Part shown: one piece after another, positions 15,829 through 60,567 of the stretch | How positions within the stretch are numbered: the stretch's first letter is position 1 | Layout of the letters: every line of letters starts with the position of its first letter | Source: an uncultured Nitrospirales bacterium | GTDB taxonomy: Bacteria > Nitrospirota > Nitrospiria > Nitrospirales > UBA8639 | DNA length: 64,000 nucleotides | Reading direction: 5' to 3' | Assembly (NCBI GenBank): GCA_951812745.1 | Contig: OX638327.1 | Location: forward strand, 1,229,914-1,293,913 | Translations under genes and position numbers: made by a program | Notes under the pieces: generated by a model | The model's database searches: none | Seen by the model: the letters and a program-made list of their open reading frames with translations, nothing else | What the model was told of the DNA's origin: nothing

Positions 15829-16154
15829 GTGCCGGGATCCGCTGGAATTGTCGGGTTACGCTACGCTACCCTGGGCTACTCGACCTTTCTCCTTCTGGCA
15901 TCCCCGACCCGATCGGGGATCCAGGGTCTTTTGTCTTAACCCGACCCACCCGATCTTGAGATTTCTGAAAAATGTGTCTTTCCGTGTTTCTTTCGGCGCC
16001 ATCTCTCTATACTATAGAGAGCGAAAATTTCCCGGCGAATGGCTTGCCTGCCTCGCCGTAACGACCGAGCCCCACGTCCCTTCACCCGGTCTGAGTCACG
16101 ATGGCCCCGACGATCATTTGCGTCTAACTTCCACAACGAGAAGAGGTGCGAATC
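15829..16154. other. Intergenic before the formate/nitrite channel
   Basis: Contains a diverged copy of the GTCGGGTTACGCTACGC palindrome (15850-15885), a CCGATCGGGGATCCAGGG repeat fragment and the palindrome at 16003-16021 listed separately. Confidence 0.5.
16003..16021. promoter_or_regulatory. Perfect 9-bp inverted repeat upstream of the channel gene
   Basis: CTCTCTATA, one central C, then TATAGAGAG. It lies 134 bp before the formate/nitrite channel start. A symmetric site like this fits a dimeric regulator. The regulator is not known. Confidence 0.5.
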
Positions 16155-17786: not shown

Positions 17787-18035
17787 CTATGCCGAGGCCG
17801 GGTGTTTCATGTTCATGTAGACGCCGCCTCTTTCGAGTTCTTCCAGCATCTGGCGTAGCCGTTTTTCTTTTGTCTCCTGGCGCTTGGCGCGGTTGATCCA
17901 ACCGACGTAGTCATTCTGTTGATACGCAGGGCGCTTATGATAGGCTTCCATCAAGCCACTCTCATCCAAAGCTTGTTTGACAAAATCCGGCATCGGGGAT
18001 CGCGGTCGCTTCAGTTTGGAAACGTCCCTACCCAT
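17787..18035 (-). CDS. YdeI/OmpD-associated-type small protein, copy 1
   Basis: 82 residues corresponding to the C-terminal half of the YdeI/OmdA family: a PRSPMPDFV start, then YVGWINRAKRQETKEKRL and LERGGVYMNMKH. A nearly identical paralogue sits at 20330-20578 on the same strand; the two differ at only a handful of positions. Function of the domain is unclear (linked to bacteriocin protection by name only). The pair bounds the ATPase, VapBC remnant and MBL gene. Confidence 0.8.
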   Translation of the reverse strand: MGRDVSKLKRPRSPMPDFVKQALDESGLMEAYHKRPAYQQNDYVGWINRAKRQETKEKRLRQMLEELERGGVYMNMKHPASA

Positions 18036-20329: not shown

Positions 20330-20578
20330 CTATGCCGATGCCCCGTGTTTCATGTTCATGTAGACGCCGCCTCTTTCGAGTTCTTCCAGCATCTGGCGTA
20401 GCCGTTTTTCTTTTGTCTCCTGGCGCTTGGCTCGGTTGATCCAGCCGATGTAGTCATTCTGCTGATACGCAGGGCGCTTATGATAGGCTTCCATCAAGCC
20501 ACTCTCATACAGGGCCTGTCTGACAAAATCCGGCATCGGGGATCGCGGTCGTTTCAGTTTGGAAAAGTCGCTGTCCAT
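20330..20578 (-). CDS. YdeI/OmpD-associated-type small protein, copy 2
   Basis: 82 residues, nearly identical to the protein at 17787-18035 (first residues MDSDFSKLK instead of MGRDVSKLK). DNA similarity extends slightly past the gene ends, so this is a recent segmental duplication of about 250 bp in direct orientation. Confidence 0.8.
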   Translation of the reverse strand: MDSDFSKLKRPRSPMPDFVRQALYESGLMEAYHKRPAYQQNDYIGWINRAKRQETKEKRLRQMLEELERGGVYMNMKHGASA

Positions 20579-20893
20579 CTTTCTGCTTCTATTTTCTTCT
20601 GCTGCAACAGGCTTGAGTTTTTATACATACGCCATTTCTATATTTTAAATGCGGAATAGGATTAACATATGCATCGATAATAGAAAAGTCCGTCAGACAG
20701 ATCTCCAAACAACGCATTAAACAAGGTTCAAAAGCAGGCTTGCCACCTGCACACCAAGGGATGAAAATGGGACGCTTCGCCCCGCTCGCTGTCGGGTTAC
20801 GCTACGCTAACCCGACCTACGGTCTCTGCCTGATTTTTTGGGGCAGAATTGTTATTTTTTTATCAAAGAGTATCTCAACAGGAGGCATTCGCA
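20579..20893. other. Intergenic with repeats and promoter of the XRE gene
   Basis: Contains an AT-rich stretch (20620-20690), a GCAGGCTTGCCACCTGCACACC repeat (20733-20789) directly abutting a REP-like palindrome (20790-20820), then the leader of the XRE gene. No gene; in particular no RelE/HigB toxin precedes the antitoxin. Confidence 0.5.
20790..20820. repeat. REP-like palindrome, perfect copy
   Basis: TGTCGGGTTACGC then TACGCTAACCCGACC. Both arms of the hairpin match exactly. Confidence 0.85.
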
Positions 20894-21169
20894 ATGAGTG
20901 ATCTTAAAGCCTACATCCGTAAAAGGAAGAAATCTGACGTTGAATTCAGAGATGGATTTGATGAAGGCTACAAAGCGTTCAAAATCGGGGTACTGCTCAA
21001 GGAGGCTCGTGAGGCTTCAGGTTTCACGCAAGACAAAATGGCTGAGAAACTGCGTACCCGGAAATCGGCCATTTCCAGAATTGAAAACCATGCCGAAGAC
21101 ATTCGCCTGTCCACTTTGGAAAAATTTGCCTCCGCACTGGGACGCAGCCTTGAAATATCAATACGGTGA
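20894..21169 (+). CDS. XRE-family antitoxin-like regulator (HigA type)
   Basis: About 91 residues from ATG 20894 (ACAGGAGG upstream). After a charged N terminus it has a helix-turn-helix of the XRE family (LLKEAREASGFTQDKMAEKL, RKSAISRIENH) and ends RSLEISIR, typical of HigA-like antitoxins. No toxin gene is found on either side, so it is either orphaned or acts as a stand-alone repressor. Confidence 0.8.
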   Translation: MSDLKAYIRKRKKSDVEFRDGFDEGYKAFKIGVLLKEAREASGFTQDKMAEKLRTRKSAISRIENHAEDIRLSTLEKFASALGRSLEISIR

Positions 21170-21509: not shown

Positions 21510-21746
21510 ATGGCTGAATCCACACAAAAGCGGGCGACTGTTTATTTCGAGCCCTCCCTCCACCGAGCCCTGCGACTGAAAGCCGCGGAGATCGACAGCA
21601 GCGTTTCCGAACTGGTGAATGAAGCGGTTCGGGAAGCCCTGGCGGAAGACGCGGAAGATCTTGCCGCGTTCGAAGCTCGCAAGAAAGAGCCCGAGCTGAT
21701 GTTTGAAAATGTCGTAAAAGATTTACGGCGACGTGGCAAGATATAA
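21510..21746 (+). CDS. Ribbon-helix-helix antitoxin
   Basis: 78 residues. An N-terminal ribbon-helix-helix (KRATVYFEPSLHRALRLKAA, SSVSELVNEAVREAL) is followed by an acidic helix and a basic tail. It overlaps the toxin start by 14 bp, the standard arrangement of a RelBE/ParDE module. It probably binds its own promoter and neutralises the toxin encoded next to it. Confidence 0.88.
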   Translation: MAESTQKRATVYFEPSLHRALRLKAAEIDSSVSELVNEAVREALAEDAEDLAAFEARKKEPELMFENVVKDLRRRGKI

Positions 21747-21999
21747 AGTACGCATCAAGCAATCAGCGGCAAAAGAACTGGAGGCCATTCCTCGGAAGTC
21801 GGACCGCCAACGAATCGTTGCCCGTATCACGGCCTTGGCGGACAACCCTCGTCCTGCCGGATGCAAAAAGCTGTCTGGATTCGAACGCTATCGAATCCGT
21901 CAGGGAGCTTATCGCATTGTCTATGCGATTGAAGATGATCGGCTTGTCGTTTACGTTGTGAAGATCGCCGATCGCAAGAGTGTTTATCGCGCCCTCTAA
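21733..21999 (+). CDS. RelE/ParE-family toxin
   Basis: 88 residues from a GTG at 21733: YKVRIKQSAAKELEAIPRK, then KKLSGFERYRIRQGAYRIVY and VVYVVKIADRKSVYR. This is the compact RelE fold with the basic residues of ribosome-dependent mRNases. It is complete and paired with the RHH antitoxin, the only fully intact toxin-antitoxin pair in the window. Confidence 0.9.
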   Translation: MARYKVRIKQSAAKELEAIPRKSDRQRIVARITALADNPRPAGCKKLSGFERYRIRQGAYRIVYAIEDDRLVVYVVKIADRKSVYRAL

Positions 22000-22192: not shown

Positions 22193-23692
22193 TTATCCGC
22201 CCGCCAGGGACGTCAGGACGGCAGGGGCTGAAGCCGCGGGGGTATTCAGATTGGAAAACATCAAGGTGGCGGCGACGGCCCAGTCGATGAAGGGTTTGGG
22301 GTAGATGCCGAGCAGCAGGGTGCCGGCGATGCCGACGAAGATGACGGTTTTCAGTGAGCCTGACACCGAAAGCGGCGTGGGATCATGGGGTTCGTTGATG
22401 TACATCTTCTTGACCACGACCAGGTAGTAGTACATGGAGATCACAATGTTGATCAGCCCGACGATCAACAGCGTGTAAAGTTCCTGTTCGATCGCCGCGA
22501 CGAAGATATAGAGTTTGCCGATGAATCCCGCGAGCGGCGGCACGCCGGCGAGCGACAACAGAAAGAGCAGCATGGCGGCCGCGAGAAACGGCGACCGTCG
22601 ATTCAACCCGTTGTAATCTTCGATTTCATCGCTCTTGATCCGATTGCTGACGCCGATGACGACGGCAAAGGCGCCCAGGTTGGCAAACAGATAGGTCAGC
22701 AAATAAAAGAGTATCGCGTCACTGCCCCGTTTGGTTCCGGCCGCCAGGCCGATCATGACGTTGCCGATTTGCGCGATGCCGGAATAGGCAAGTAACCGTT
22801 TGATGTTTTTCTGGGCGATGGCCACGATGTTGCCGTAGGTCATGGACAGGATGGAGGCCACGACGAACAGGAGGACCCACGCGGGTTTAAACGTCGCGAG
22901 CGCGACGTAGAACATTCTGATGAGAATGGCTAACGCCGCACCTTTGGGCGCGATCGACAGAAAGGCGGTGACCGGCGTGGGGGCCCCCTGGTAGGTATCG
23001 GGAATCCAGGAGTGAAACGGGACGGCCCCGATTTTAAAGCCCAGGGCGGCGAAGATCATGATGAAGCCGATGGCCAGCCCATAGCTGCCGGGCACCGACA
23101 CCATTTCGGAAAATATCAGCGTTCCCGTTTCGCCATAGACGAGACTGATTCCATACGCGAGCAACCCCGCGGCGAACACGCCCAGGATGAAGAACTTGAG
23201 CCCCGCTTCGCTGGATTTCTGATCTTCGCGCAGATAGGCCACCAGCACGTAAAAGCCGAAGGTGGAGAATTCCAACGTGACGAATACGGAGAGCAGGTCC
23301 TGGGCCGAAGCCATGAACATCATGCCCAGGGCCGACATCATGACCAGGAAATAATATTCGCCCCTGAAAAACTTGAACGATTTGACGTAGTCGATCGAAG
23401 CCAGCAGGACCATCGCCGTGGCGATCAACACGAAAATCTTGAAGAAGATCGCCACCCCATCCAGGACAAACATGTCTTTGAACAATGCGCCCTGGACGCC
23501 GGTGTAATCGAACCAGATCAGGTTGATCAGCGTGGCGACGACGCCCCCCACGCTCAAGTAGGCCAGTTTTTCGTGGTCGATCTGTCTAAAGGTAAAGTCA
23601 ACGGCCAACACCACGCACAACCAGATGGTGAGGAAAATCTCGGGCGCCAGGAGGAGGAGGTCCGCACTTGATAGGGTAAGGTCGAAAGTCAT
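22193..23692 (-). CDS. nuoN: NADH-quinone oxidoreductase subunit N
   Basis: 499 residues, about 14 membrane helices. One of the antiporter-like proton-pumping subunits of complex I. Conserved features include FVTLEFSTFGFYVLVA (TM5 Glu), GFKIGAVPFHSWIPDTYQGAP (TM7 Lys) and FLLSLAGVPPLAGFIGK. Last gene of the operon, starting six bases after the second nuoM stop, so it is surely co-transcribed and translationally linked. The C terminus ends without a clear terminator before the intergenic repeat block. Confidence 0.96.
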   Translation of the reverse strand: MTFDLTLSSADLLLLAPEIFLTIWLCVVLAVDFTFRQIDHEKLAYLSVGGVVATLINLIWFDYTGVQGALFKDMFVLDGVAIFFKIFVLIATAMVLLASIDYVKSFKFFRGEYYFLVMMSALGMMFMASAQDLLSVFVTLEFSTFGFYVLVAYLREDQKSSEAGLKFFILGVFAAGLLAYGISLVYGETGTLIFSEMVSVPGSYGLAIGFIMIFAALGFKIGAVPFHSWIPDTYQGAPTPVTAFLSIAPKGAALAILIRMFYVALATFKPAWVLLFVVASILSMTYGNIVAIAQKNIKRLLAYSGIAQIGNVMIGLAAGTKRGSDAILFYLLTYLFANLGAFAVVIGVSNRIKSDEIEDYNGLNRRSPFLAAAMLLFLLSLAGVPPLAGFIGKLYIFVAAIEQELYTLLIVGLINIVISMYYYLVVVKKMYINEPHDPTPLSVSGSLKTVIFVGIAGTLLLGIYPKPFIDWAVAATLMFSNLNTPAASAPAVLTSLAGG

Positions 23693-23698
23693 GACGGG

Positions 23699-25294
23699 TT
23701 ACGGCAACAGCCCCGTGGTATTTTGGGTGACCACCGGAGCCACCTGGTTGATTCGATCCAACATCGGCACGACCGTCGAGCGCACGACGTTGTAGAAGTG
23801 CATGGGGAAGATGCCGAAGAAGATGCTGCACCCGATCATCACGAGCAGCGGGAGGCGATCCACCCATTGCGACGTGTCACGGGCATCCGCATATTCGGGC
23901 GACATGTTCCCATAGAACAACCCGCGCATCATTTTAAAGAGATAGGCCATGGTCAACACGATCCCCAGCACGGCCACCACCACCTGGAACGGATATTTCT
24001 CCCATGCGCCGACGATAATCATGATTTCGGCGATGAAGTTCACGGTGCCGGGCATCCCGACCGATGCCATACAGGCGATGACAAAGGCCCCGGCCAGGAA
24101 CGGCATGTTCTTGACCAGTCCTCCCAGGGACGGAATGTCCCGTGTATGGGTCTGATCATAGACCCAGCCCGCCATGGCGAAGAGCATGCCCGTGGCCAGG
24201 GCGTGCGCGAACATGTATATCACCGCGCCGGTCAGGCTGATGTAATCCAAGGCGGCCATGCCCAAGAACACGTAGCCCATGTGACTGGAACTGGAATAGC
24301 CGATGACGTACTTCGTGTCCTTGGCGAAATACGCGACGAACCCGCCGTAGATGATGCTGAACACGCACAACACCGCGGCGATGGGCATGAGTTCCCGCGT
24401 GGTTTCGGGAAGGATTTCATACGCCACGCGGATGATGGAGAAATGGCCGAGTTTCATGAGCACGCCGGCGTGCAACATGCTGGTCGCGGCCGGAGCCGCG
24501 GCGTGGCCGACTGGAGACCAGGAATGCAACGGCCAGATCGGCGCAATGGACGCAAAGCCGAAAAAGACCAACAGCCAAATAATTATGGCGAGCGTGCCGT
24601 CAAAATCGGCCACTTCCCGCAGCACCAGAATGTCGAACGTCTGGACGGGCGAGAAATGGTAAATCAGCAGGATGCCCATCAACGCGAACACCGCTCCCGC
24701 CGAGAGGAACAGCGTGAGCTTCATCGCGGCGTATTCCTTGCTGTTCGCCCCGAAGTTCAGGATGAACCCGACCGAATCACGGAGCTTTTGGCCTTCGGAA
24801 TCGGTCATGCTCAAATAACCTTTGGTATGACTCCCCCACACGCCCAGCAACACGTACATGGGCAACACCGACATTTCATAAAAGAAGTAGAGGAAGAACA
24901 GGTCCAGCGACATGAAGACCCCGATGGTCGCCGCTGCCAGGATCAACAGAAAGATGTAAAACTCCTTGGTGCGATCCTTGATGTGCCACGAAATGAAGAT
25001 GCCCGCGAACAGCAGGATGGCCGAGGCAAAGACCAACGGGGCCCCGATTCCATCCACCCCGATGTGAAATCCGATGCCCAGTTCCTCGGACCACGCCCAC
25101 TTGGTGATGAATTGGAAGCCGCCCTGGTCGGGATCATAGGCCATGAAGACGTACAGCGAGGCGAGCAGCGCCGTCCCGGCGGAGGTCGCGGCCACGGCCC
25201 GCACCAGCAGCGGCTCGCGATTGGGAACAAACAGCAACGCGATGGCCCCGAGGAACGGGGCAAACAGGGTTGCCAGTAAAGCCAATTGACCCAT
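23699..25294 (-). CDS. nuoM: Divergent second NuoM (2M-type complex I)
   Basis: 531 residues, about 14 membrane helices. NuoM family by FFYEMSVLPMYVLLGVWG (TM5, Glu140) and the later MASVGMPGTVNFIAE. The TM7 region reads GFASIAPIWPLHSWSPVGH instead of the usual pattern FAVK-P-FPFHTWLPDAH. The TM7 lysine is Ile here (about residue 250), while the TM8 lysine (LMKLG, Lys281) is kept. The loop between TM5 and TM6 is about 25 residues longer than normal. Three bases separate it from the first nuoM. It is probably the extra antiporter-like subunit of a two-NuoM complex. Confidence 0.92.
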   Translation of the reverse strand: MGQLALLATLFAPFLGAIALLFVPNREPLLVRAVAATSAGTALLASLYVFMAYDPDQGGFQFITKWAWSEELGIGFHIGVDGIGAPLVFASAILLFAGIFISWHIKDRTKEFYIFLLILAAATIGVFMSLDLFFLYFFYEMSVLPMYVLLGVWGSHTKGYLSMTDSEGQKLRDSVGFILNFGANSKEYAAMKLTLFLSAGAVFALMGILLIYHFSPVQTFDILVLREVADFDGTLAIIIWLLVFFGFASIAPIWPLHSWSPVGHAAAPAATSMLHAGVLMKLGHFSIIRVAYEILPETTRELMPIAAVLCVFSIIYGGFVAYFAKDTKYVIGYSSSSHMGYVFLGMAALDYISLTGAVIYMFAHALATGMLFAMAGWVYDQTHTRDIPSLGGLVKNMPFLAGAFVIACMASVGMPGTVNFIAEIMIIVGAWEKYPFQVVVAVLGIVLTMAYLFKMMRGLFYGNMSPEYADARDTSQWVDRLPLLVMIGCSIFFGIFPMHFYNVVRSTVVPMLDRINQVAPVVTQNTTGLLP

Positions 25295-25297
25295 CGC

Positions 25298-26872
25298 TCA
25301 GTCCTTCCCTCCGGGCTCAGGGGCCAAGGCATGAGACAGCAGCGTCCGGTCCCGCTCAACGCTCGCGAGCGACCCGCGGTCCAACCGGTCCATCACGGCC
25401 TGCAGCGATCCGTTGACCATTCGCAAGAAAGGTGAGGGGTACAACCCGATCCAGAAAATCATCACGCACAGGGACACGGCAATGAACGATTCGCGTCGAG
25501 TCAGGTCCTTGAGTACCTGCGGGACTCGCTCGCCGATGGGTCCGAAAATCGCCCGCTCGTAGTACCACAGGAAATAGGCGGCGGCGAAGATCACCCCGGA
25601 GACGGCGACGACCCCATACACCCAATGCGCCTGAAACGCGCCCAGCAGGATCAGAAATTCGCCGATAAAGCCATTCGTTCCGGGCAATCCTATCGAGGCC
25701 ATCCCGATGATCAGGAAGAACGTGGCCAAGAGGGGCATCTTCGAGGCAATGCCTCCGCAATTTTCGAGGAGCGTATTGCCGAGCCGGTCATAGAGAAACC
25801 CGGCCAGGAAAAAGAGCCCCGCGGTCGTAAAGCCCAGATTGATCATTTGCAGCAGGCTGCCTTGGAGACCCTGGAAGTTCAAGGCAAACAAGCCCAATAC
25901 GACGAACCCCAAGTGACTGATGCTGCTGAAGACGAGCAGGCGCCTGAAGTCCGCTTGCATAATGGCGATGATCGCGCCCCAGACGATGGCGGCCAAAGCC
26001 AAACCCATGACGATCGCCACCACGGTGGCGTTGGTCGAGGCTTCCGGCAGCAACGGGAAGCTGAACCGCAGGAACCCGTAGGTTCCCAACTTGACGCCCG
26101 CCAACACCACGGACATGCCGATGGGCCCTTGTACGAGCGCATCCGGCAACCACGTGTGGAACGGAAAGACCGGAGCCTTGAAGGCCAATCCCATGAAGAT
26201 GAGCCAAAAGATCAAAATCTGATCCCCGACCGGAACGGGCACCTGCAACAGGTCCAACAAGTCGAAACTGTAGGTGTTCGTGACCTCGTGGTAATTCAGA
26301 CTCAACAGGGCGAAACCGACCAACATGAACACGCTGCCCAACAGGGTGTACAACACGTACTTGAGCGCGGCGTATTCTTTCTCCTCGCCCACACCCCACA
26401 GTTTAATCAGGAAATAGCTGGGCACGAGCATGAGTTCCCAGAACACGAAGAAGAGGATCAGGTCGATGGAAACGAAAATCCCCATAATCGTCGTTTCCAA
26501 CGCGAGGATACTCATGAAGTACGCTTTGGGCCTGTCCTGAACGGCATCCCAGGAATAGAGAATGATCAGGACCGTGATGAAGGCCGAGAGGCCGACGAAC
26601 AGGACGCTGATGCCGTCCACGGCGAGGTGATAGGAAATGCCGAGCGCCGGAATCCAATTCACCTGTTCGCTGAATTGCATAGCCGCGGATTCCGGTATGA
26701 ACCGGAGCAACACCAGGACGGCGAGGCCCAACTCGAGAAGCGCGACGCCCAGCGCGGACTTTTTGATCAGGTCGGTATCCCGTTGCGTCCACAACCCGAT
26801 CGCCCCGAGAAGCGGGAGAAAGAGCAGTATCGACAAAATCGGGAATCCAAATTCCAGTTCTTCAAGCATCAC
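25298..26872 (-). CDS. nuoM: Canonical NADH-quinone oxidoreductase subunit M
   Basis: 524 residues, about 14 membrane helices. Proton-pumping antiporter-like subunit with all key residues: FFVFWELMLVPSYFLI (TM5 Glu146), GLAFKAPVFPFHTWLPDA (TM7 Lys232), VVLAGVKLGTYGFLR (TM8 Lys) and IGMASIGLPGTNGFIGEF. Compared with the second copy it is the standard one. It lies between nuoL and the divergent copy, with spacings of a few bases on both sides. Confidence 0.96.
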   Translation of the reverse strand: MMLEELEFGFPILSILLFLPLLGAIGLWTQRDTDLIKKSALGVALLELGLAVLVLLRFIPESAAMQFSEQVNWIPALGISYHLAVDGISVLFVGLSAFITVLIILYSWDAVQDRPKAYFMSILALETTIMGIFVSIDLILFFVFWELMLVPSYFLIKLWGVGEEKEYAALKYVLYTLLGSVFMLVGFALLSLNYHEVTNTYSFDLLDLLQVPVPVGDQILIFWLIFMGLAFKAPVFPFHTWLPDALVQGPIGMSVVLAGVKLGTYGFLRFSFPLLPEASTNATVVAIVMGLALAAIVWGAIIAIMQADFRRLLVFSSISHLGFVVLGLFALNFQGLQGSLLQMINLGFTTAGLFFLAGFLYDRLGNTLLENCGGIASKMPLLATFFLIIGMASIGLPGTNGFIGEFLILLGAFQAHWVYGVVAVSGVIFAAAYFLWYYERAIFGPIGERVPQVLKDLTRRESFIAVSLCVMIFWIGLYPSPFLRMVNGSLQAVMDRLDRGSLASVERDRTLLSHALAPEPGGKD

Positions 26873-26878
26873 TCAACC

Positions 26879-28861
26879 CTACAACAGAGAACTTCCGGTC
26901 AACCACACCAGCAGAAAATGCGTCACAAGAAAAAGGCCGATGACGATGACGGCGGCGTAATGGTTGACCAACCCGGTCTGCAATTTCCGCCATGACCAGG
27001 CCGCCAGATGATTGGCGTACCCGATCACGTTAATCCCCCCGTATATGATGTGTTTCTCGGTCCAGGTCGCTCCGGCCGCACTGATGTCGGCCCCGTGCCC
27101 GATCCCCCTGATGAAGCGATCGATCACGTGTTGATCGATCCAATCCCATAGCCGGGCAAGCCGTTTACAGGGCTCGACGAAAACGGCGTCGTACAGTTCG
27201 TCCACGTAGTATTTGTTCAACAGAGTCCGATACGCCCCGGCATACCGCGCCGACCAGTTATCCGCGGTCCCCGGTTTGATCGCGTACAGGTAGTGCGCCA
27301 ATCCCCAACCACTCAACGCGATCCCGATGGCCACCGCCATCAATCCGATGATAGTCCCCATGGCTACGTCATGCGTCACCACGTCCACGGGCGCGGCCAC
27401 GGATTCCAAAAAGCCATGGAACCAGCCATGTTCCGGCGGCACACCCAGGAACCCGCCCAGCACGGAGAGCCCGGCCAGGATCATCAGCGGCACGGTCATG
27501 ACCGGCGGAGACTCATGAATATGATGTTCCACCTTCGGATCGACCCGGGACTGCCCGTAGAACGTTACATAGGTGAGACGGAACATGTAAAACGACGTCA
27601 GGAACGCCCCGACCGCCGCAAAGGAATACAGCACGTAATAGTGATGCACAAAGGCATGGGCCATGATTTCGTCTTTGCTCCAGAACCCCGCCAACGGAGG
27701 AATACCGGCAATGGCCAGCGTGCCGATGAGAAACACGGCGTGCGTCACGGGAATTTTCTTGGAAAGCCCGCCCATCTTTCGGATGTCCTGTTCCCCTTCG
27801 AGCGAATGGATCACCGCGCCCGCGGACAGGAACAGGAGCGCCTTGAAAAACGCGTGGGTCACGAGATGGAAAATGGCGGCCATGTACGCCCCGACCCCAC
27901 AGGCCAGAAACATGTACCCCAATTGACTGACGGTCGAATAGGCCAGCACCCGTTTGATGTCGTTTTGCACCAGCCCGATCGTGGCGGCAAACAACGCGGT
28001 CAGGCCGCCGATGATCCCCACCGTCGCCATGGACACGGGAGCCATGTCGTATAACACGTGAGTGCGCACCACCATGTACACCCCGGCCGTGACCATCGTC
28101 GCGGCGTGGATCAACGCGCTCACCGGCGTCGGGCCTTCCATGGCGTCGGGCAGCCACGTATACAACGGAATTTGGGCGGACTTTCCAATCGCGCCCACCA
28201 ACAGGCACAGCGTAATGACCGTGGCCATTTCGACGGAGAGCTGGTTCGCGTTTTCGAAGACCTTCAAGTAATCCAGGGTCTTGAAATTGACGAAGACCAA
28301 GAAGATCGCCAGCAGGAACCCGGCGTCGCCGATCCGGTTGACCACAAACGCCTTGGTGGCGGCCTTGGCCGCGGAGACCTTGTTAAAGTAGTACCCGATC
28401 AAAAGATAGGAGCAGAGGCCGACCCCTTCCCATCCGATGAAGAGCACCAGGAAATTGTTCCCCATGACGAGCAACAGCATGGAGACCATGAACAGATTCA
28501 TGTACACGAAGAAGCGGGTAAACCCGTCTTCGCCATGCATGTACCCGATGGAATAGACGTGAATCAGAAACCCGACCCCCGTCACCACCATCAACATCAC
28601 GGCAGTCAGCGGATCGATCAGAAATCCGAAATTGACGTGCAGATCGCCCCCGAAAATCCACGAATAGGCAATGACTTCGCGGGGCGTGGGATCGGCAAGC
28701 ACTCCGGCGACCACCGCGACGGCACACAGAAATGAAAGCCCGACGGACCCGACCGCAATACGACCGGCCAGGTCAACGGCATAGCGATGACCGAGCAGGC
28801 CGTTCACCAGCACCGCAATGAGAGGGAAGACCGGGATCAGAATGACGAGAAGATCGGACAC
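26879..28861 (-). CDS. nuoL: NADH-quinone oxidoreductase subunit L, extended lateral helix
   Basis: 660 residues from GTG 28861; about 16 membrane helices plus the long C-terminal lateral helix. Conserved motifs include FIGWEGVGLCSYLLIG, GKSAQIPLYTWLPDAMEGP and PLAGFWSKDE. Between VDELYDA and LQTG I count 67 residues, against about 43 in ordinary NuoL as I remember it, so the lateral helix is longer by roughly 24 residues. That is the expected adaptation to span a second NuoM. Starts one base after nuoK. Confidence 0.96.
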   Translation of the reverse strand: MSDLLVILIPVFPLIAVLVNGLLGHRYAVDLAGRIAVGSVGLSFLCAVAVVAGVLADPTPREVIAYSWIFGGDLHVNFGFLIDPLTAVMLMVVTGVGFLIHVYSIGYMHGEDGFTRFFVYMNLFMVSMLLLVMGNNFLVLFIGWEGVGLCSYLLIGYYFNKVSAAKAATKAFVVNRIGDAGFLLAIFLVFVNFKTLDYLKVFENANQLSVEMATVITLCLLVGAIGKSAQIPLYTWLPDAMEGPTPVSALIHAATMVTAGVYMVVRTHVLYDMAPVSMATVGIIGGLTALFAATIGLVQNDIKRVLAYSTVSQLGYMFLACGVGAYMAAIFHLVTHAFFKALLFLSAGAVIHSLEGEQDIRKMGGLSKKIPVTHAVFLIGTLAIAGIPPLAGFWSKDEIMAHAFVHHYYVLYSFAAVGAFLTSFYMFRLTYVTFYGQSRVDPKVEHHIHESPPVMTVPLMILAGLSVLGGFLGVPPEHGWFHGFLESVAAPVDVVTHDVAMGTIIGLMAVAIGIALSGWGLAHYLYAIKPGTADNWSARYAGAYRTLLNKYYVDELYDAVFVEPCKRLARLWDWIDQHVIDRFIRGIGHGADISAAGATWTEKHIIYGGINVIGYANHLAAWSWRKLQTGLVNHYAAVIVIGLFLVTHFLLVWLTGSSLL

Positions 28862-28862
28862 G

Positions 28863-29165
28863 TTACCACTTCAACAGATTAATCTGGTCGACGTTCGTCG
28901 CAATTTTTCCACGGAACACCACGATAATGATCGCCAGGCCCACGGCGGCCTCCCCGGCCGCGATCGCGATCACGAACAACGCCGCCATTTGGCCGGCCAT
29001 CGACGAGAGGTAATGGGAGAACGCCACAAGATTGATATTCGCCGCATTCAACATGATTTCGACCGACATCAGGACAATGATGAAATTCCGGCGGATCAGG
29101 ACGCCCAACAGGCCCGTCATGAACAGGATGAAACTCAACCCCACGTATGCCGACAAAGGAATCAT
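28863..29165 (-). CDS. nuoK: NADH-quinone oxidoreductase subunit K
   Basis: 100 residues, three membrane helices. Conserved acidic residues in [16 protein letters not shown] and [13 protein letters not shown] belong to the proton path beside the quinone module. ATG 29165 gives the usual length; a GTG three bases earlier is also possible. Tightly packed between nuoJ and nuoL. Confidence 0.96.
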
Positions 29166-29175
29166 CACGTACCGC

Positions 29176-29700
29176 TTACCCGTCAGCCCCGGCAGTCGGG
29201 GCAGTCGGGGTTTTGGCCAAGACGATCGCCCCGATAATGGCGCCTAAGAGAAAGACTCCCACAATTTCGAACAACAACAAATAGTCGCTGAACATGGTGA
29301 TGCCCACGGCGTGACTGGGCCTGGTCTGCAACACGACCTCCGGGGTCGCGACCCCTTTGGCCCCGCCGTAGGGGGTTTGAAACACCAGAATGAGCAATTC
29401 GCCGAGAATCGCGACGCCGGCGAACAGGAAGAAAGGATATTTTTTATGCAGATACTGTTCTTCGGTTTTCAGGTTGAGCAACATCAGGACGAAGAGATAG
29501 AGCACGAGGATGGCCCCGGCGTAGACGATGATCTGCACGGCAAACAGAAACTCGGCGTTGAGTAACACGAAAAGCCCGGCCACGTGCAGGAGCAACGACA
29601 GCAGGCTCAGGCCGCAATGGACAGGATTCTTCAGGGCGATCGTGAAAATACCGGACAGGATACTCACGGTCGCAAAGTACCCGAACAATAAATAGATCAT
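29176..29700 (-). CDS. nuoJ: NADH-quinone oxidoreductase subunit J
   Basis: 174 residues, five membrane helices. [20 protein letters not shown] and [19 protein letters not shown] (TM3, with the pi-bulge segment that couples quinone reduction to proton transfer) are clear. Ends with a short Ala/Thr/Pro tail. Nine bases after nuoI. Confidence 0.96.
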
Positions 29701-29709
29701 CGTGAAAGA

Positions 29710-30285
29710 CTACGAGTCGGGAGCCTCGGTTTTTCCTATGGGTTGCGGGAAGTGGTACCGGTAGGCGCGACTCTCCTCGTCATCGTCTTCCTGATTATGG
29801 GCATAGAGATATTTTTTCGCGTCTTCCAGATGCTGTTCACCGATGTCGTAGAGTCGCTCTTTGTCGAACAGGAGGGTCCGTTTATCATGGGTCGAATACT
29901 CGTACATCTTCGTCATGGCCAACGCATTGACCGGGCAGGCCTCCACGCAATATCCGCAAAACACGCATTTGGTGATATCGATGTAAAACTCGCTCGCATA
30001 CCGTTGCAGCGGCAGGGACTTGTCCTCCTCACTGATGACCTTGATGCACCGGGACGGACAGGCTACCTCGCAGAGGTCGCACCCGACACACCGTTCCTGC
30101 CCGTTGTCGTACCGCAACAAGCCCAAGGCTCCGCGATGCGCGTCGGGGATCGTCCGCTTTTCACGGGGATACTGGAAAGTCATCGGACGATGAAGCATGT
30201 GCTTGAACGTGACCTTCATCGCCTTCCAGATTTCGCGGAACAGGACCGCGTCCAGGAATCTTTTCGTTTGAGCTGGAGTATCCAT
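29710..30285 (-). CDS. nuoI: NADH-quinone oxidoreductase subunit I
   Basis: 191 residues. Peripheral-arm protein with two [4Fe-4S] clusters (N6a and N6b): CVGCDLCEVACPSRC and CVFCGYCVEACPVNA. The N-terminal FKHMLHRPMTFQYPREKR helix docks to the membrane arm. GGAG precedes the ATG. It directly follows nuoG, where nuoH would normally lie; nuoH is not in this window. Confidence 0.96.
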   Translation of the reverse strand: MDTPAQTKRFLDAVLFREIWKAMKVTFKHMLHRPMTFQYPREKRTIPDAHRGALGLLRYDNGQERCVGCDLCEVACPSRCIKVISEEDKSLPLQRYASEFYIDITKCVFCGYCVEACPVNALAMTKMYEYSTHDKRTLLFDKERLYDIGEQHLEDAKKYLYAHNQEDDDEESRAYRYHFPQPIGKTEAPDS

Positions 30286-30292
30286 AGATCTC

Positions 30293-32986
30293 CTACAGTT
30301 TTTCGATCGTCACCTGCGTGGATTTGAAATAGGGAACGCGCGTCACGGGGTCCACGACGACCCGGACCAGATCCTTGACCGGAGGATCATTGAAATGTTC
30401 AGGAAACGCGCAGGTTCCCGGCAACATGTTGACGTCTGCTTGCACTCCCAACTCCAGGCTTCCCTGATCCGAAGTCACGCGAACGCGCCCGCCTTCGGCG
30501 ATGCCCAACCGTTCGCATTCTTCCAGGGACATGCGTAACGCGCCGGTGTTCGGCGAAATATCCATCAACCCGGAAGCTTTCGTGGACAATTTCCCCGAAT
30601 GATAAATGAGCTGGATCAATTTCAATCCATAGGGCCGGCCTGACTCTTGCGTGCGACCACGTACGCCATACCGGGCATCCACCGACTCCGCATAGCCGTT
30701 CCGAAGATACGCCGTGGGATCCGGGGCGACGGGCCGGGGTTGACCGAGGTTATAGTAGCCGGGGAGCAGCCTTCGAATTTCCGCTTGAATGTCCTGCGTC
30801 GTTTCATAGGGAAGCGCATGCCCCATGCCGTTGGCCAGTCCCACCATGATGTGCCAATCCAACGCGCTCTCACCCAACGGGTCCAACGCCGGCCTGACGA
30901 ATTGGACCATCCCCTCCTGGTTGGTGACGGTGCCGTCTTTTTCCGCAAACGTACACGCCGGGAACACCACGTGCGCATGCTGCGCCGTCTCCGTCATGAA
31001 GGGATCCTGACAGATCAACAATTCCAATTGGCTCAGGGCCTCCTCCACGCCGAATGATTTCGGAAGCGTGGCCAACGGATTTTCCCCTACCACGTAGAGG
31101 GCTTTGATCTTGCCGGTGCGGCAATCCTCCAAAATTTCGACGAGGGATTTGCCGGCCTGTGCGTCCGGCAACGTCGAGCCCCACGCTTCGGAAAATTTCT
31201 GCCGTGCCGTGGCCTGCTCATAAGCCTCGGGTCCCGGGAGGAATTCGGGGGCGACTCCCATATCCACGGCACCCTGCTCGTTCCCCTCTTCGGCGAACGT
31301 GTTGATTCCACACCCGGGCTTGTTCAATTTTCCCGTCACCCAAGCCAAATCGATCAGGGATAACGTATGGTCATAGCCGTCGTGCTGGCGCAGGATTCCT
31401 TCTCCACACACGATGACGGAGCGCGGGGCTTCCGCAAACACCCTGGCAGCCTCCTGTATCATCTCGACCGGGACTCCCGTTTCCTCGGCCACGGTCTCGA
31501 GCGAAATAGTATGGGCCGCGGCTTTCAAAGCAGCCAACGCCTGAGGATCCTGAGAGGCGAGGTCCGGATCGATGAGATCCTGCTCCAGGACCGATTTGAC
31601 CAATCCCTTGACGAATGTTCCCTCCGTTCCCGGTTTGACCATTGCCGGATGCGACGCCAACTTGGCCAGGTTCGTTTGCATGGAATCCACCACGATGGCC
31701 GATGCCTTATAGGTGCCGATCGCGGCCTTCACCCGCAGGCTGGCCACGGGATTCGTTTCCGTCACGTTCGCCCCCACCACCAGGATGGCCTTGGCTTTCG
31801 TAATGTCCGCCGACGTGTTCATCATACGGTTGATTCCGAGGGCGTGATGAACCGCCCGCACGAAATTCATATGACCGTACCGCGCGCTGCTGTCGAGATT
31901 GTTCGTTCCGAGCACGGTCCGCATGAATCGCTGGAAGACGTAGAGTTCTTCATTCGTGCACCGCGCCGTCATCAGGCCCGCGATGGCTTCAGACCCGTAT
32001 CGACTCTTGACGTGCGCCAGCCGCTCGGCGGTCGTGTCCAGGGCTTCAATCCACGGCGTGGGGACCAGACCCGTCTCTTTGCGAATGAGCGGCTCCTTCA
32101 GTCGATCTTTACTGTCGATAAACTGGAAGCCGAACCGCCCACGCACGCAGAGCCCACTATGACCGTTGATCGTATCCACCCGGTCGCCCCATTTATTTTT
32201 CCAGGACAAGGGAGAGGTCACCCGCACGACTTCCGTATCCTTGGTTTCCACGTACATTTGACAGCCGTCGCCGCAGTAATTGCAGGTGGTTGTGGTTTTC
32301 CGGAGCTGCCAGGGCTTATACACGTATTTCGAAAATTTGTTGGTGATCGCTCCCACGGGACAGACCGCGAGGCAATCGCCGCAAAATTCGCAGTCCAGGG
32401 CGTGATCGCCCTTCGCCACGACCTGCGTAAACCCGCCCTTTTTCATGAACTGCAAGGCGTCGATGCGCTGGACGTCCTTGCAGATATTGATGCATTCCCC
32501 GCACGCAATGCAGCGGTTCATATTGAAGTCGAGCACCAGGCTGCGCGTATCCTCCGGAATATGTTTCTGTTTGGCGTTGGCCAGGTCGGTGACCTGGTGC
32601 TCGAAGGCCATGTCCTGCAGCTCGCAATGCCCGTCCGCGTCGCAGACCGGACAATCCAGGGGATGCACGGAGAGGTGTTTTTCAACGGCTTTTTTCCGCG
32701 CCGCGAACAGATCGTCCCCATCCGTACGGATCACCATCCCTTCGGTGGCCTTGGCGGTGCAGGAACGCACCGGCGACTTCTTTCCTTCCTGCAGCACCAG
32801 ACACATGCCGCAGGAACCGAAGGGATCGAACGTATAGTGATAACACATGGCCGGGACGATTTTCCCCATGCTGGAAATCACGTCATATAGCGAAACCCCT
32901 TCTTTCGCGGTAACGGTTTCGCCGTCGATACTTAGAGAAATCGTCGCGGCTTCAGTATCGGGTGTCGTGACCGGTTTGAGTGCCAT
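30293..32986 (-). CDS. nuoG: NADH-quinone oxidoreductase subunit G
   Basis: 897 residues. An N-terminal ferredoxin domain (CYHYTFDPFGSCGMC), the His-Cys cluster segment (CDADGHCELQDMAFEH), two 4Fe-4S motifs (CIACGECINICKD, CEFCGDCLAVCPVG), an extra cluster motif (CNYCGDGCQMYVE) and a long molybdopterin-oxidoreductase-like domain without obvious catalytic role. It is the largest peripheral subunit and passes electrons towards quinone. The usual neighbours nuoE and nuoF (NADH and FMN module) are absent, so electrons may enter from elsewhere or those genes lie outside the window. Confidence 0.95.
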   Translation of the reverse strand: MALKPVTTPDTEAATISLSIDGETVTAKEGVSLYDVISSMGKIVPAMCYHYTFDPFGSCGMCLVLQEGKKSPVRSCTAKATEGMVIRTDGDDLFAARKKAVEKHLSVHPLDCPVCDADGHCELQDMAFEHQVTDLANAKQKHIPEDTRSLVLDFNMNRCIACGECINICKDVQRIDALQFMKKGGFTQVVAKGDHALDCEFCGDCLAVCPVGAITNKFSKYVYKPWQLRKTTTTCNYCGDGCQMYVETKDTEVVRVTSPLSWKNKWGDRVDTINGHSGLCVRGRFGFQFIDSKDRLKEPLIRKETGLVPTPWIEALDTTAERLAHVKSRYGSEAIAGLMTARCTNEELYVFQRFMRTVLGTNNLDSSARYGHMNFVRAVHHALGINRMMNTSADITKAKAILVVGANVTETNPVASLRVKAAIGTYKASAIVVDSMQTNLAKLASHPAMVKPGTEGTFVKGLVKSVLEQDLIDPDLASQDPQALAALKAAAHTISLETVAEETGVPVEMIQEAARVFAEAPRSVIVCGEGILRQHDGYDHTLSLIDLAWVTGKLNKPGCGINTFAEEGNEQGAVDMGVAPEFLPGPEAYEQATARQKFSEAWGSTLPDAQAGKSLVEILEDCRTGKIKALYVVGENPLATLPKSFGVEEALSQLELLICQDPFMTETAQHAHVVFPACTFAEKDGTVTNQEGMVQFVRPALDPLGESALDWHIMVGLANGMGHALPYETTQDIQAEIRRLLPGYYNLGQPRPVAPDPTAYLRNGYAESVDARYGVRGRTQESGRPYGLKLIQLIYHSGKLSTKASGLMDISPNTGALRMSLEECERLGIAEGGRVRVTSDQGSLELGVQADVNMLPGTCAFPEHFNDPPVKDLVRVVVDPVTRVPYFKSTQVTIEKL

Positions 32987-33054
32987 CTATCTCTCCCGCT
33001 CCTGCATTCAGGAGCTCATCAAGTTTTTTCAATTGCCCCCAACTCCACAGGCTG

Positions 33055-34305
33055 TTACCTGTCGCATTCTCCCATGACGATGTCGTACGACCCGAAAATC
33101 GTGACCGCATCGGCGATCATGTACCCTTTAGCCATAAAATCAAACGCCCCCATGTGGATAAAGGACGGAGACCGGATCTTCAGGCGATACGGGTTCCCTC
33201 CCCCCGTACTCACGATATAAAACCCCAGCTCACCTTTATGCGCTTCGGTTCCGCAATAAATCTCTCCGGGCGGCGCATCGAACCCCTGGGAAAACAGTTT
33301 GAACTGCTGGATCATGGATTCGAGATTCGTAAACACCCGGTTCTTGGGCGGCAGGGTGACGCTGGGCACGTCGGCCATCACCGGCCCTTCCTTCGGCATC
33401 TGGTCCATGCATTGACGAATGATCTTGATGCTCTCGCGCATTTCTTCAATGCGGATCCAATACCGGTCATAGGTGTCGCCGTTTTTGCCGACCGGCACGC
33501 TGAACTCGCACTTGGGATAGGCGCCATACGACTCGTATTTGCGCAAGTCGTAATCGACGCCCGACCCACGTAGCGTCGGCCCGCTCAACCCATAACCCAA
33601 GGCGTCCTCCGCCGAGATGACCGCCACGCCCACGGTCCGAGCCAGCCAGATACGGTTCTTTTCCAGGAACACCACGTATTCGTCGATCTTGGGAGGAAAG
33701 TACGCCAGAAAGTCCCGGATCTTGGTCTCCAGCGAAGCGGTCAAGTCCCGTTCCACGCCGCCGATCCGATACCAACTGGTGGTCAGCCGCGCCCCGCACA
33801 GTTCATCGAACCAGTCAAGCAGAATCTCACGGTCACGAAACGTGTAGAAGAACACGGTCATCGCCCCGATATCGAGCGCCTGCGTCCCCAACCAAAACAG
33901 ATGCCCGATAATCCGTTGGATTTCCGCCACGATGGTGCGCAAATATTCCGCCCGCTCGGGCACGGTCACGTTCATCAATTTCTCGACGGCCCGGCAATAG
34001 GCAAAGTTGTTATACATCGCGCAGACGTAGTCGAGACGATCCGTATGAGGAATAAATTGATGATAGGTCCCGTGTTCGGCGAGTTTTTCCACTCCCCGAT
34101 GGAGAAAGCCCATGACCACCGTGGATTTGGTAATCCGCTCCCCTTCCAGATCGAGGATCACTTTCAGCACCCCATGCGTCGCGGGATGCTGCGGCCCCAT
34201 GTTCAACAACAGTTCCTCGGTCCGCAGGATCGGCAGATCCCTGGTCTCCGGATGGGCCGGATCGACTTTATAGATGGTTTCGCGTTGGTCTTCTAAATGC
34301 GCCAT
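33055..34305 (-). CDS. nuoD: NADH-quinone oxidoreductase subunit D
   Basis: 416 residues. The 49-kDa subunit that helps form the quinone site: LLLNMGPQHPATHGVL with the key His, VVMGFLHRGVEKLAE, GLSGPTLRGSGV and a C terminus ending in FGSYDIVMGECDR. It is separate from nuoC, as in most non-enteric bacteria. Stop is 68 bp before nuoG. Confidence 0.97.
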   Translation of the reverse strand: MAHLEDQRETIYKVDPAHPETRDLPILRTEELLLNMGPQHPATHGVLKVILDLEGERITKSTVVMGFLHRGVEKLAEHGTYHQFIPHTDRLDYVCAMYNNFAYCRAVEKLMNVTVPERAEYLRTIVAEIQRIIGHLFWLGTQALDIGAMTVFFYTFRDREILLDWFDELCGARLTTSWYRIGGVERDLTASLETKIRDFLAYFPPKIDEYVVFLEKNRIWLARTVGVAVISAEDALGYGLSGPTLRGSGVDYDLRKYESYGAYPKCEFSVPVGKNGDTYDRYWIRIEEMRESIKIIRQCMDQMPKEGPVMADVPSVTLPPKNRVFTNLESMIQQFKLFSQGFDAPPGEIYCGTEAHKGELGFYIVSTGGGNPYRLKIRSPSFIHMGAFDFMAKGYMIADAVTIFGSYDIVMGECDR

Positions 34306-34334
34306 GGTTGCTCTCGAAAGGGGTCTCCTGCTCG

Positions 34335-34835
34335 TCAGGAGGCCGAACCCTCATTCAGAAACTCGAACGTATCGCGCCAGCCCTTGCCCTGCAGAGGAAA
34401 ATCCTTTCGTAGCGGATAGCCTTCGGGAAAGTCGTCCGGCATCAGAATCCGCCGCATGTCCGGGTGGTTGTTGAAACGAATGCCCATCATGTCGAACACT
34501 TCCCGCTCCATGAACTCCGCGCCCGGCCAAATATCCGTCAACGAATCCACGAAACAGTCGTGTTCCGGCACCCGCGTTTTCACGCGGATGCGATGGCGAT
34601 GGCGGATGGAATAGACTTCATAGACGACTTCAAAGCGCTCCTCCTCGTCCGGCCAATCCACCGAACTGACGAGGACGATGTAATCGCAATCCATGGACGG
34701 GTCATCCTTCAGGAACCGGCCGATCGCGTGCAGGGCGTCGCGCTTCACCGTCACGGCCAGATCACCCCGCCATTCATGGGCACTCAGGAACCCATCGGCA
34801 AATCGGGCTTGAATGGTTTCGGCAAGAGGATGCAT
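34335..34835 (-). CDS. nuoC: NADH-quinone oxidoreductase subunit C
   Basis: 166 residues from ATG 34835, whose first base is also the last base of the nuoB stop (TAATG), a coupling signal that decides this start over one at 34958. It contains YIVLVSSVDWPDE and the family signature AEFMEREVFDMMGIRFNNHPD. Structural 30-kDa subunit beside nuoD. Confidence 0.95.
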   Translation of the reverse strand: MHPLAETIQARFADGFLSAHEWRGDLAVTVKRDALHAIGRFLKDDPSMDCDYIVLVSSVDWPDEEERFEVVYEVYSIRHRHRIRVKTRVPEHDCFVDSLTDIWPGAEFMEREVFDMMGIRFNNHPDMRRILMPDDFPEGYPLRKDFPLQGKGWRDTFEFLNEGSAS

Positions 34836-35371
34836 TACCCGATGGCCTTGTCCCGGGGCCTGACCTGTTCGGGCTGTTTGGTAAAGACCCGCTTCTGCAT
34901 AATCTGATCCTGAAGCTTCAAAATCCCGTCGAACAGGGCTTCGGGGGTGGGGGGACACCCGGGCACGTAAATATCGACCGGCACGAAGCGGTCCACGCCT
35001 TGCACCACGCTGTAACTATCGTAAATGTTCCCGGACGTGGCGCAGGACCCCATGGAAATGACGTACTTGGGTTCGGGCATCTGGTCGTAGATTTTTCGAA
35101 TGACCGGAGCCATACGCCGACACACCGTACCCGCCACGATCATCAAATCGGATTGGCGAGGAGAACCACGAAACACGCCGGCCCCGTACCGGTCCACGTC
35201 ATACCGGGAGGAGACCGCGGCAATCATCTCAATCGCGCAACAGGCCAACCCGAACGTCATCGGCCAGAGCGATCCTTTCCGCGCCCAATTCGCGGCCTTT
35301 TCCAGAGTCAGCGTGATAACCCCGATATCGCCGTCCTTCTCGTGCTTTTTCCCTATTTGTATCAGCCCCAT
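34835..35371 (-). CDS. nuoB: NADH-quinone oxidoreductase subunit B
   Basis: 178 residues. It carries terminal cluster N2: [12 protein letters not shown] with the adjacent cysteines, [11 protein letters not shown] and [15 protein letters not shown]. Nearest cluster to quinone. Normally it follows nuoA by a few bases, but here about 285 bp of repeat sequence lie between them. Confidence 0.97.
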
Positions 35372-35655
35372 GGATACCTCATTTTCCGTCGTCCTTTCAC
35401 CAAGTAGGTCGGATTAGACATTGGGGCTCCACATATGCTCCAGTTCCACGCCTTTGGTGTAGGGACAGGCCTGTGTGCCTGTCCGAGCCTCAGTAAGACA
35501 ACCCCCTCAATCCCCCTTATCAGGGGGACGGCAGAGCCCCTATCCCCCCTGATAAGGGGGGCCAGGGGGGTTCATCTCTTACGCCAAGCCACCGCCGACC
35601 GACCGCTTCGCCAGCGCCGTAGGTCGGATTAGCGTAGCGTAATCCGACATTGGGG
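35372..35655. repeat. Repeat block between nuoA and nuoB
   Basis: A truncated REP-like palindrome (35402-35425, GTAGGTCGGATTAGACATTG), a CCCCCTCAATCCCCC and TATCAGGGGGACGG repeat (35498-35575) and a full palindrome (35620-35649) with the same ACATTGGGGCT tail. The two palindromes are direct copies bracketing the middle repeat. No gene. Confidence 0.8.
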
Positions 35656-36042
35656 CTAATCCCACTCCAACGCGCCTTTTCTCCACGCGTACACGTAGGC
35701 CACGACAAACAGACCGATGAAAATCATCATTTCAATGAGGCCGATCACGCCGAGTTGGTCAAAGGTGACGGCCCAGGGATAGAGAAAAATGACTTCGATA
35801 TCGAAAATAACGAACAACATCGCGATGACGTAATACCGGACGGGAAACGGCATCCGAGAATCGGAAAACGGCTCACTGCCGCATTCATAGACGCTGAGTT
35901 TTTCAGCTTCGGGATACTTCGGTTGGACGAGATAACTCAGGAGGAGCGTCACCACGCCAAATCCCAACGCCAGGATAATAAACACGACTATTGGCGAATA
36001 TTTCGCGAGATAGTCCAAAAACAGATCAAGGTCACTGACCAT
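35656..36042 (-). CDS. nuoA: NADH-quinone oxidoreductase subunit A
   Basis: About 128 residues from ATG 36042 (GAGG ten bases upstream; an ATG at 36066 would add eight residues). Three membrane helices with YECGSEPFSDSRMPFPVRYY and FVIFDIEVIFLYPWA, the conserved loop and TM2 acidic residues near the quinone tunnel. First gene of the operon, separated from nuoB by the repeat block. Confidence 0.96.
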   Translation of the reverse strand: MVSDLDLFLDYLAKYSPIVVFIILALGFGVVTLLLSYLVQPKYPEAEKLSVYECGSEPFSDSRMPFPVRYYVIAMLFVIFDIEVIFLYPWAVTFDQLGVIGLIEMMIFIGLFVVAYVYAWRKGALEWD

Positions 36043-36653
36043 CAGGATTTGACCTCGCAAGAGCATGTCCCCGATCCCCGATTAAAGATGTCGAGGACAG
36101 GCTCTGATCGGGGATCTTATCGGGGATCAAAAACTTCAATCTTTTCGCATAATTCTGGATCGTAGCACCGCATTTTCCAACGAATCAAGAGAACAAAAGA
36201 CCTACCGTCGCGTTTCAAAAGGCCCAATTCCGTAATTCCCTTGGGGAAACAATCGGGACATCCCCGCGAAACGGGAATCTGCAGACACCATTTTCCGGAA
36301 CACGGGAAGAGAGCATTTCAGCCCCCAACGGGTCCGATGGATCTCATGATGACCCTGAAAGACGCGAAGTGACGTTGCTCATACGCTGCTTCCCGGAATG
36401 GAGCTTATCCTGCGGAACGTGACGTCACGTGACCCAGCCAACGCTCGTTGCAAAGGGTCGTCAGCTTCTTTTATGGTGGCTCTTGCAAAACTCGTCTTTA
36501 CAGCCTACACAACCGCTACCCCGGATTGATCCCCGATTAAGAATGTCGAGGACAGGGGCCGGGGCAAGCCTCATGCCCCCTCACCTCTCTGGATAATGGA
36601 GTGGAAGGGAGGCAACGAAGTCGTGAACACGTGGATGACAAAAAAGGAGCATC
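36043..36653. other. Divergent intergenic region nuoA/glk
   Basis: Should hold the nuo promoter on the minus strand and the glk leader on the plus strand. It contains two CCCCGATTAA(G)A-type repeat fragments ending GTCGAGGACAGG (36068-36125, 36525-36590) and a diverged copy of the 35-bp family (36611-36640). No gene; no clear promoter boxes by eye. Confidence 0.45.
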
Positions 36654-60537: not shown

Positions 60538-60567
60538 AATCGGGGTGCATTGGTTATTTTCATGCCA

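What the first reader, a model, noticed from the sequence alone, without database searches (positions are those of the whole stretch)
23699..28861. Two-NuoM complex I with a lengthened NuoL lateral helix
Two complete but very different nuoM genes are adjacent, and NuoL has about 24 extra residues in its C-terminal lateral helix by my count. Together these match the published 2M-type complex I (described in Nitrospira and some other groups), expected to pump more protons per turn or to run in reverse for ferredoxin reduction. The combination strengthens the lineage guess and the idea that the enzyme works against a high proton-motive force.
Basis: partly seen in the sequence, partly recalled or inferred. 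Interest (0 to 1): 0.75.

Follow-up and report, generated by a model that had tools for sequence, protein, structure and literature searches.

The report
Four-pump complex I with altered pump
A Nitrospira-like bacterium carries the already described enlarged respiratory complex I with two NuoM proton-pump subunits, but the extra one has, in every relative checked, lost two amino acids that an ordinary complex I cannot work without, so the common claim that it adds a fifth pumped proton is doubtful and can be tested.

Summary
Window 22193-36066 (minus strand) is a nuoABCDGIJKL-M1-M2-N cassette with two complete, very different nuoM genes. NuoL carries 25 more lateral-helix residues than the same genome's canonical NuoL and 29 more than E. 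coli NuoL. The cassette lacks nuoE, nuoF and nuoH. That matches clade 3 of the 2M complex I already described in Nitrospira, so it is a new member of a known kind. The genome belongs to order Nitrospirales. Trees place both NuoMs inside NuoM, not with Mrp or hydrogenase subunits.

In 128 of 128 NuoM2 sequences across class Nitrospiria, the TM7 lysine (E. coli K234) is Ile and the gating leucine (L244) is Ser. Changing either position abolishes catalysis in canonical NuoM. NuoM2 is nevertheless under strong purifying selection and has gained two TM8 histidines and a ~28-residue loop. A fifth canonical pump is therefore not supported by sequence; a modified or non-pumping fourth unit is more likely. 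The genome has only one NuoH gene, in the canonical operon, so the 2M enzyme probably shares it. I could not read the founding 2M paper.

The parts
22193..23692 (-). nuoN (499 aa); TM5 Glu, TM7 Lys, TM8 Lys and TM12 Lys kept in 138/138 relatives
23699..25294 (-). nuoM2 (531 aa), the extra, highly diverged NuoM
24545..24547 (-). NuoM2 Ile250, at the position of E. coli NuoM Lys234 (TM7 lysine); Ile in 128/128 NuoM2
   Evidence: coordinate worked out from gene start 25294
24515..24517 (-). NuoM2 Ser260, at the position of E. coli NuoM Leu244 (P. denitrificans L242); Ser in 128/128
24470..24472 (-). NuoM2 His275, new TM8 histidine six residues before TM8 Lys281, the spacing reported for H273/K279 in MrpA
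24443..24445 (-). NuoM2 His284, second TM8 histidine (127/128)
24746..24829 (-). approximate TM5-TM6 loop insertion of NuoM2 (39 residues against 11 in canonical NuoM)
25298..26872 (-). nuoM1 (524 aa); TM7 Lys kept, His at E. coli positions 248 and 348 lost, two residues missing just before the TM8 Lys
26879..28861 (-). nuoL (660 aa) with lengthened lateral helix; seven key polar residues checked are all kept in 95/95 relatives
27008..27091 (-). approximate extra lateral-helix segment of NuoL (residues about 591-618)
28863..29168 (-). nuoK
29176..29700 (-). nuoJ
29710..30285 (-). nuoI (4Fe-4S ferredoxin domains)
30293..32986 (-). nuoG (897 aa; 2Fe-2S, 4Fe-4S and molybdopterin-type domains)
33055..34305 (-). 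nuoD, separate from nuoC; HPATHG and LDYV motifs of the quinone site present
34335..34958 (-). nuoC (the true start is probably internal, since the ORF overlaps nuoB)
34835..35371 (-). nuoB
35656..36066 (-). nuoA

Best explanation
The cassette encodes a clade-3 '2M' complex I (shown by anatomy and relatives; about 0.95). Its membrane arm probably holds four antiporter-like subunits in the order L-M1-M2-N, spanned by a lateral helix of NuoL that is 25-29 residues longer, about 37-43 A if helical (inferred; about 0.85). It lacks the NADH module and has no NuoH of its own, so it most likely borrows the single NuoH of the canonical operon and runs backwards: proton-motive force drives electrons from quinol out through NuoB/I/G to a low-potential carrier, probably ferredoxin (inferred; about 0.65). 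The extra subunit, NuoM2, is not a plain fourth pump. The TM7 lysine of its coupling point and the gating leucine of its proton-uptake channel are replaced in every relative. It therefore either only relays energy and protons along the arm without ejecting its own proton, or moves one by a rebuilt TM8 His-Lys route (inferred; about 0.65 for 'not canonical'). A ratio of five protons per two electrons cannot be assumed.
For: Gene content and order. No NuoH or NuoF in any of 115 related 2M loci, and one NuoH in the whole genome, in the canonical operon. Clade-3 definition from PMC6606698. NuoL insertion fixed at 85 residues in 95/95. Order L-M1-M2-N in 161/161. Tree: NuoM2 is a 100/100 clade inside NuoM (100/99), sister to all other NuoMs sampled (99/95). 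K234->Ile and L244->Ser in 128/128 NuoM2 (48 clusters at 90% identity), against Lys and Leu in 30/30 canonical NuoMs. New TM8 His in 128/128. Mutating the equivalents K232 and L242 abolished catalysis in P. denitrificans (PMC9802314). Purifying selection on NuoM2: dN/dS 0.04-0.07. Natural precedent: HycC of E. [quoted passage not shown]
Against: In canonical enzymes the lysine change stops all turnover, not just one proton, so NuoM2 must differ in more than one step and the mutant data may not carry over. Long retention of a whole extra subunit and the matching helix extension argues that it earns something, possibly a proton. NuoM2 keeps TM5 Glu, TM8 Lys, TM10 His and TM12 Glu, so a modified pump is plausible. 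There are no biochemical data and no structure. The AlphaFold models were weak exactly in the TM7-8 break and in the lateral helix.
Confidence: 0.65

Rival explanations
1. NuoM2 is a full fourth proton pump, as usually assumed, and the enzyme moves five protons per two electrons; a water chain or the new TM8 histidines stand in for the missing TM7 lysine.
For: Most of the canonical axis residues remain in NuoM2, plus two new TM8 histidines with MrpA-like His-Lys spacing; the subunit is strongly conserved.
Against: The lysine and the gating leucine are required in the complex I enzymes studied by mutation and both are gone in 128/128.
Confidence: 0.35
2. The 2M genes do not form a separate ferredoxin-linked enzyme; they combine with NuoE, NuoF and NuoH of the canonical operon into an NADH-linked variant with a longer membrane arm.
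For: All three missing subunits can be supplied by a canonical operon in the genome, and NuoH must be borrowed in any case.
Against: The cassette has its own A, B, C, D, G, I, J and K, so the NADH module would have to dock on a diverged NuoG. The operons are about 980 kb apart, and published work treats them as functionally separate.
Confidence: 0.2
3. NuoM2 belongs to the Mrp or hydrogenase branch and was annotated NuoM by default.
For: It is very diverged and has an MrpA-like TM8 His-Lys spacing.
Against: Two trees and profile scores place it inside NuoM.
Confidence: 0.03
4. NuoM2 is a decaying duplicate.
For: Loss of two residues thought essential.
Against: Intact in 128 sequences, dN/dS 0.04-0.07, altered motif nearly invariant.
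Confidence: 0.01

Closest known systems
Clade-3 2M complex I of Nitrospira (Chadwick et al. 2018, not readable here; described in PMC6606698 and PMC12342949)
   Same: Two NuoMs, lengthened NuoL, separate nuoC and nuoD, no nuoE/F/H, and a canonical operon with fused CD elsewhere in the genome
   Different: No difference in gene content found. The residue losses in NuoM2 are shared by the whole clade sampled here; the papers I could read do not mention them.
Complex_I_3 of Ca. Manganitrophaceae (PMC9040806)
   Same: Homologous M1, M2 and N; in clusters of this type (L172-L176) NuoM2 also has Ile at the TM7 lysine site
   Different: NuoL is replaced by two MrpD-like subunits; M1 keeps both histidines; M2 has Asp in place of the TM11 His
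Canonical complex I (E. coli; own genome L012)
   Same: Same subunit families and the same charged axis in L, M1 and N
   Different: Three antiporter-like subunits, shorter lateral helix, has NuoE/F/H, all pump residues present
HycC of E. coli formate hydrogenlyase
   Same: Naturally lacks the TM7 lysine (Leu) and the gating Leu (Val) while keeping the TM5 Glu
   Different: A hydrogenase subunit, not a NuoM by tree; the only antiporter-like subunit of its complex

Membership tests
Clade-3 2M complex I | Two adjacent nuoM genes in a nuo cassette | tested here: met
Clade-3 2M complex I | Insertion in the NuoL lateral helix | tested here: met
   85 against 60 and 56 residues, 95/95 relatives
Clade-3 2M complex I | Lacks nuoE, nuoF and nuoH | tested here: met
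Clade-3 2M complex I | Enlarged NuoG | tested here: inconclusive
   897 aa, against 889 in the own canonical NuoG and 908 in E. coli; same Fe-S motif layout as the own canonical NuoG
Clade-3 2M complex I | NuoMs of the Nitrospira 2M lineage | tested here: met
   NuoM2 78% identical to that of Ca. Nitrospira defluvii, L090; trees
Clade-3 2M complex I | Four antiporter-like subunits in one assembled complex | not testable with these tools
   needs a structure
Functional proton-pumping NuoM (applied to NuoM2) | TM5 Glu-TM7 Lys pair | tested here: not met
   Lys is Ile in 128/128
Functional proton-pumping NuoM (applied to NuoM2) | Gating Leu after the TM7 His-x-Trp motif | tested here: not met
   Ser in 128/128
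Functional proton-pumping NuoM (applied to NuoM2) | TM8 Lys and TM12 Glu | tested here: met
   128/128 each
Mrp or hydrogenase antiporter-like subunit (applied to NuoM2) | Groups with those families in a tree | tested here: not met

The most novel reading that the evidence does not exclude
The extra NuoM of clade-3 2M complex I is not a canonical fourth proton pump. It is an anciently re-engineered unit that lost the TM7 lysine switch and the gating leucine and gained a TM8 His-x5-Lys path, so the enzyme either still moves four protons or moves a fifth by an undescribed mechanism; and it shares one NuoH with the canonical complex.
Probability: 0.6. Interest if true: 0.7.

Novelty: new member of a known kind. 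Interest (0 to 1): 0.5.

Why it matters
The 2M complex I is used in models of how nitrite- and manganese-oxidising bacteria reach ferredoxin potential for CO2 fixation, with five (or, in Manganitrophaceae, six) protons per turn assumed. If NuoM2 does not pump canonically, those energy budgets need revision. It would also be a natural complex I antiporter-like subunit that survives without a lysine treated as essential for coupling, which gives a direct test of coupling models. A single NuoH serving two different complexes would be unusual as well.

Tried and rejected
NuoM2 as an Mrp or hydrogenase subunit: rejected by trees and profile scores. NuoM2 as a pseudogene: rejected by dN/dS and invariance. 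A displaced TM7 lysine: none; between residues 233 and 256 NuoM2 has no K, R, H, D or E, and the site is anchored without gaps seven residues before the TM7 His. A second NuoH elsewhere in the genome: none. AlphaFold models of NuoM2 and NuoL had low confidence in the regions that matter, so no geometry was taken from them. Enlarged NuoG with an extra Fe-S cluster: not distinguishable from the own canonical NuoG. The primary 2M paper (PMC6194058) is not in the library.

Full report
On the minus strand the window carries nuoA (35656-36066), nuoB, nuoC, nuoD, nuoG, nuoI, nuoJ, nuoK, nuoL (26879-28861), nuoM1 (25298-26872), nuoM2 (23699-25294) and nuoN (22193-23692). Both NuoMs pass the NCBIfam NuoM cut-off. 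The two NuoMs are not a recent duplication: in a careful tree M1 groups with ordinary NuoMs, while M2 is a fully supported, long-stemmed clade inside NuoM and sister to all other NuoMs sampled (the wider quick tree agrees).

The lateral-helix insertion is real and fixed in length. Between the anchors NKYYVDELYD and HYAAVIVIG, NuoL has 85 residues, against 60 in the canonical NuoL of the same genome and 56 in E. coli, and 85 in all 95 relatives measured. Twenty-five to 29 extra residues would be about 37-43 A of helix (1.5 A per residue, textbook value), roughly one antiporter-like subunit. The AlphaFold model has very low confidence there and adds nothing.

The host is a complete 2.35-Mb genome of order Nitrospirales. 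Its nearest named relatives are 'Nitrospira sp.' MAGs such as SB0662_bin_26 and CO36405bin_1 (97% identical NuoM2); that these are from marine sponges is my recollection, not tested. The genome also has a full canonical nuo operon (L012, with fused CD and its own F, G and H) and an Mrp cluster with extra NuoL- and NuoM-like genes (L011), as described for lineage IV Nitrospirales (PMC12342949).

The cassette is the known clade-3 2M complex I. PMC6606698 describes clade 3 as having a NuoM duplication, a lengthened NuoL, and no NuoE, NuoF or NuoH. All of these were tested and met here. NuoH is the telling absence: the whole genome has one NuoH, in the canonical operon. No NuoH or NuoF was found in any of 115 related 2M loci (some loci are cut by contig ends). 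Across 59 Nitrospirales genomes, strong NuoH matches occur once in nearly all; of the four genomes with two, the three that could be checked have a second canonical-type NuoM near the second NuoH. Since NuoD keeps the HPATHG and LDYV motifs of the quinone site (that these carry the quinone ligands is textbook knowledge), the enzyme most likely works on quinone and borrows NuoH. A stand-alone NuoF-like gene lies at G000:1621994-1623301, as reported for N. moscoviensis.

The NuoM2 profile was found in 109 of 295 genomes drawn from the phylum, all of them in class Nitrospiria (109 of 113 there, 0 of 182 elsewhere).

The new point concerns NuoM2. Aligned without gaps through the TM7 motif, E. coli NuoM Lys234 corresponds to Ile250. 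It is Ile in all 128 NuoM2 sequences, which form 48 clusters at 90% identity and span at least nine families of the class. All 30 canonical NuoMs from the phylum have Lys, as do the other nine antiporter-like subunits of this genome. The gating leucine (E. coli 244) is Ser in 128/128, and Asp246 is Val in 128/128. In P. denitrificans ND4, K232Q, L242A and H246F (E. coli numbers are two higher) lost catalysis although the complexes assembled (PMC9802314); mutation of the lysine in E. coli L, M or N also loses function (PMC3046159). The structure-based model of PMC7419157 calls this lysine absolutely conserved and part of the coupling point between neighbouring antiporter-like subunits.

NuoM2 is not decaying. 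dN/dS against congeners is 0.04-0.07, with the TM7-8 stretch at 0.00-0.05, and the altered motif is invariant across most of the class. It has gained a TM8 histidine at E. coli position 259 (128/128) and another at 268 (127/128). The first lies six residues before the TM8 lysine, the spacing of H273/K279 in MrpA, where that histidine is proposed to link to the cytoplasm. It also has a TM5-TM6 loop of about 39 residues against 11. NuoM1 keeps the lysine and nearly always the leucine but has lost His248 (Leu in 141/151) and His348 (Leu in 144/151), with two residues deleted just before its TM8 lysine. In the Manganitrophaceae-type hybrid clusters M1 is canonical while M2 still has Ile, so the NuoM2 change is probably older than the split between the two arrangements.

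A natural parallel is HycC of E. coli formate hydrogenlyase: Leu at the lysine site and Val at the leucine site. [quoted passage not shown]

Mechanism: shown here are gene content, order, the helix extension and the residue changes. Inferred are the in-line four-subunit arm, the shared NuoH, reverse flow to ferredoxin, and a non-canonical role for NuoM2. I put the chance that NuoM2 works as a full fourth pump at about one in three.

Limits: the 128 sequences share one ancestor, so the change is one event kept by selection, not 128 events. The founding paper could not be read, so I cannot say that the lysine loss is unreported; the papers citing it that I searched do not mention it in the passages found. 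Other 2M clades were not sampled.

Noticed in passing
G000:1621994-1623301 (L215:4995-6302): A stand-alone NuoF-like gene without NuoE next to it; a similar highly expressed gene in N. moscoviensis was proposed as a partner of the 2M complex.
   Followed up: partly
L011:8548-15376 (G000 about 1130.5-1137.4 kb): Mrp antiporter cluster with an extra 713-aa NuoL-like and a 500-aa NuoM-like gene; by tree the NuoM-like one groups with canonical NuoM and keeps the pump residues checked.
   Followed up: partly
L054, L055, L056 and L171-L176, L180: Homologous 2M clusters where NuoL is replaced by weakly similar MrpD-like subunits, possibly including a family within order Nitrospirales (L054-L056; cut by contig ends). 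This may widen the range of the Manganitrophaceae-type five-subunit arm.
   Followed up: no
17787-18035 and 20330-20578: Two nearly identical 82-aa ORFs on the same strand about 2.3 kb apart, flanking an ATPase gene and a metallo-beta-lactamase-fold gene.
   Followed up: no
60357-60842: ORF that contains a piece resembling the N-terminal part of the leucyl aminopeptidase-like gene at 41613-43115, apparently a degraded partial copy.
   Followed up: no
4373-6415: ORF of 680 aa with tandem repeats of about 16 residues (MGRPDTDLTLAEITAL) behind a lipoprotein-like start.
   Followed up: no
20849-21169 and 21733-21999: Helix-turn-helix protein and a RelE/HigB-like small protein, possible toxin-antitoxin genes beside the nuo cassette.
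   Followed up: no
16146-16967: Formate/nitrite transporter-like gene near the cassette, in keeping with a nitrite oxidiser.
   Followed up: no
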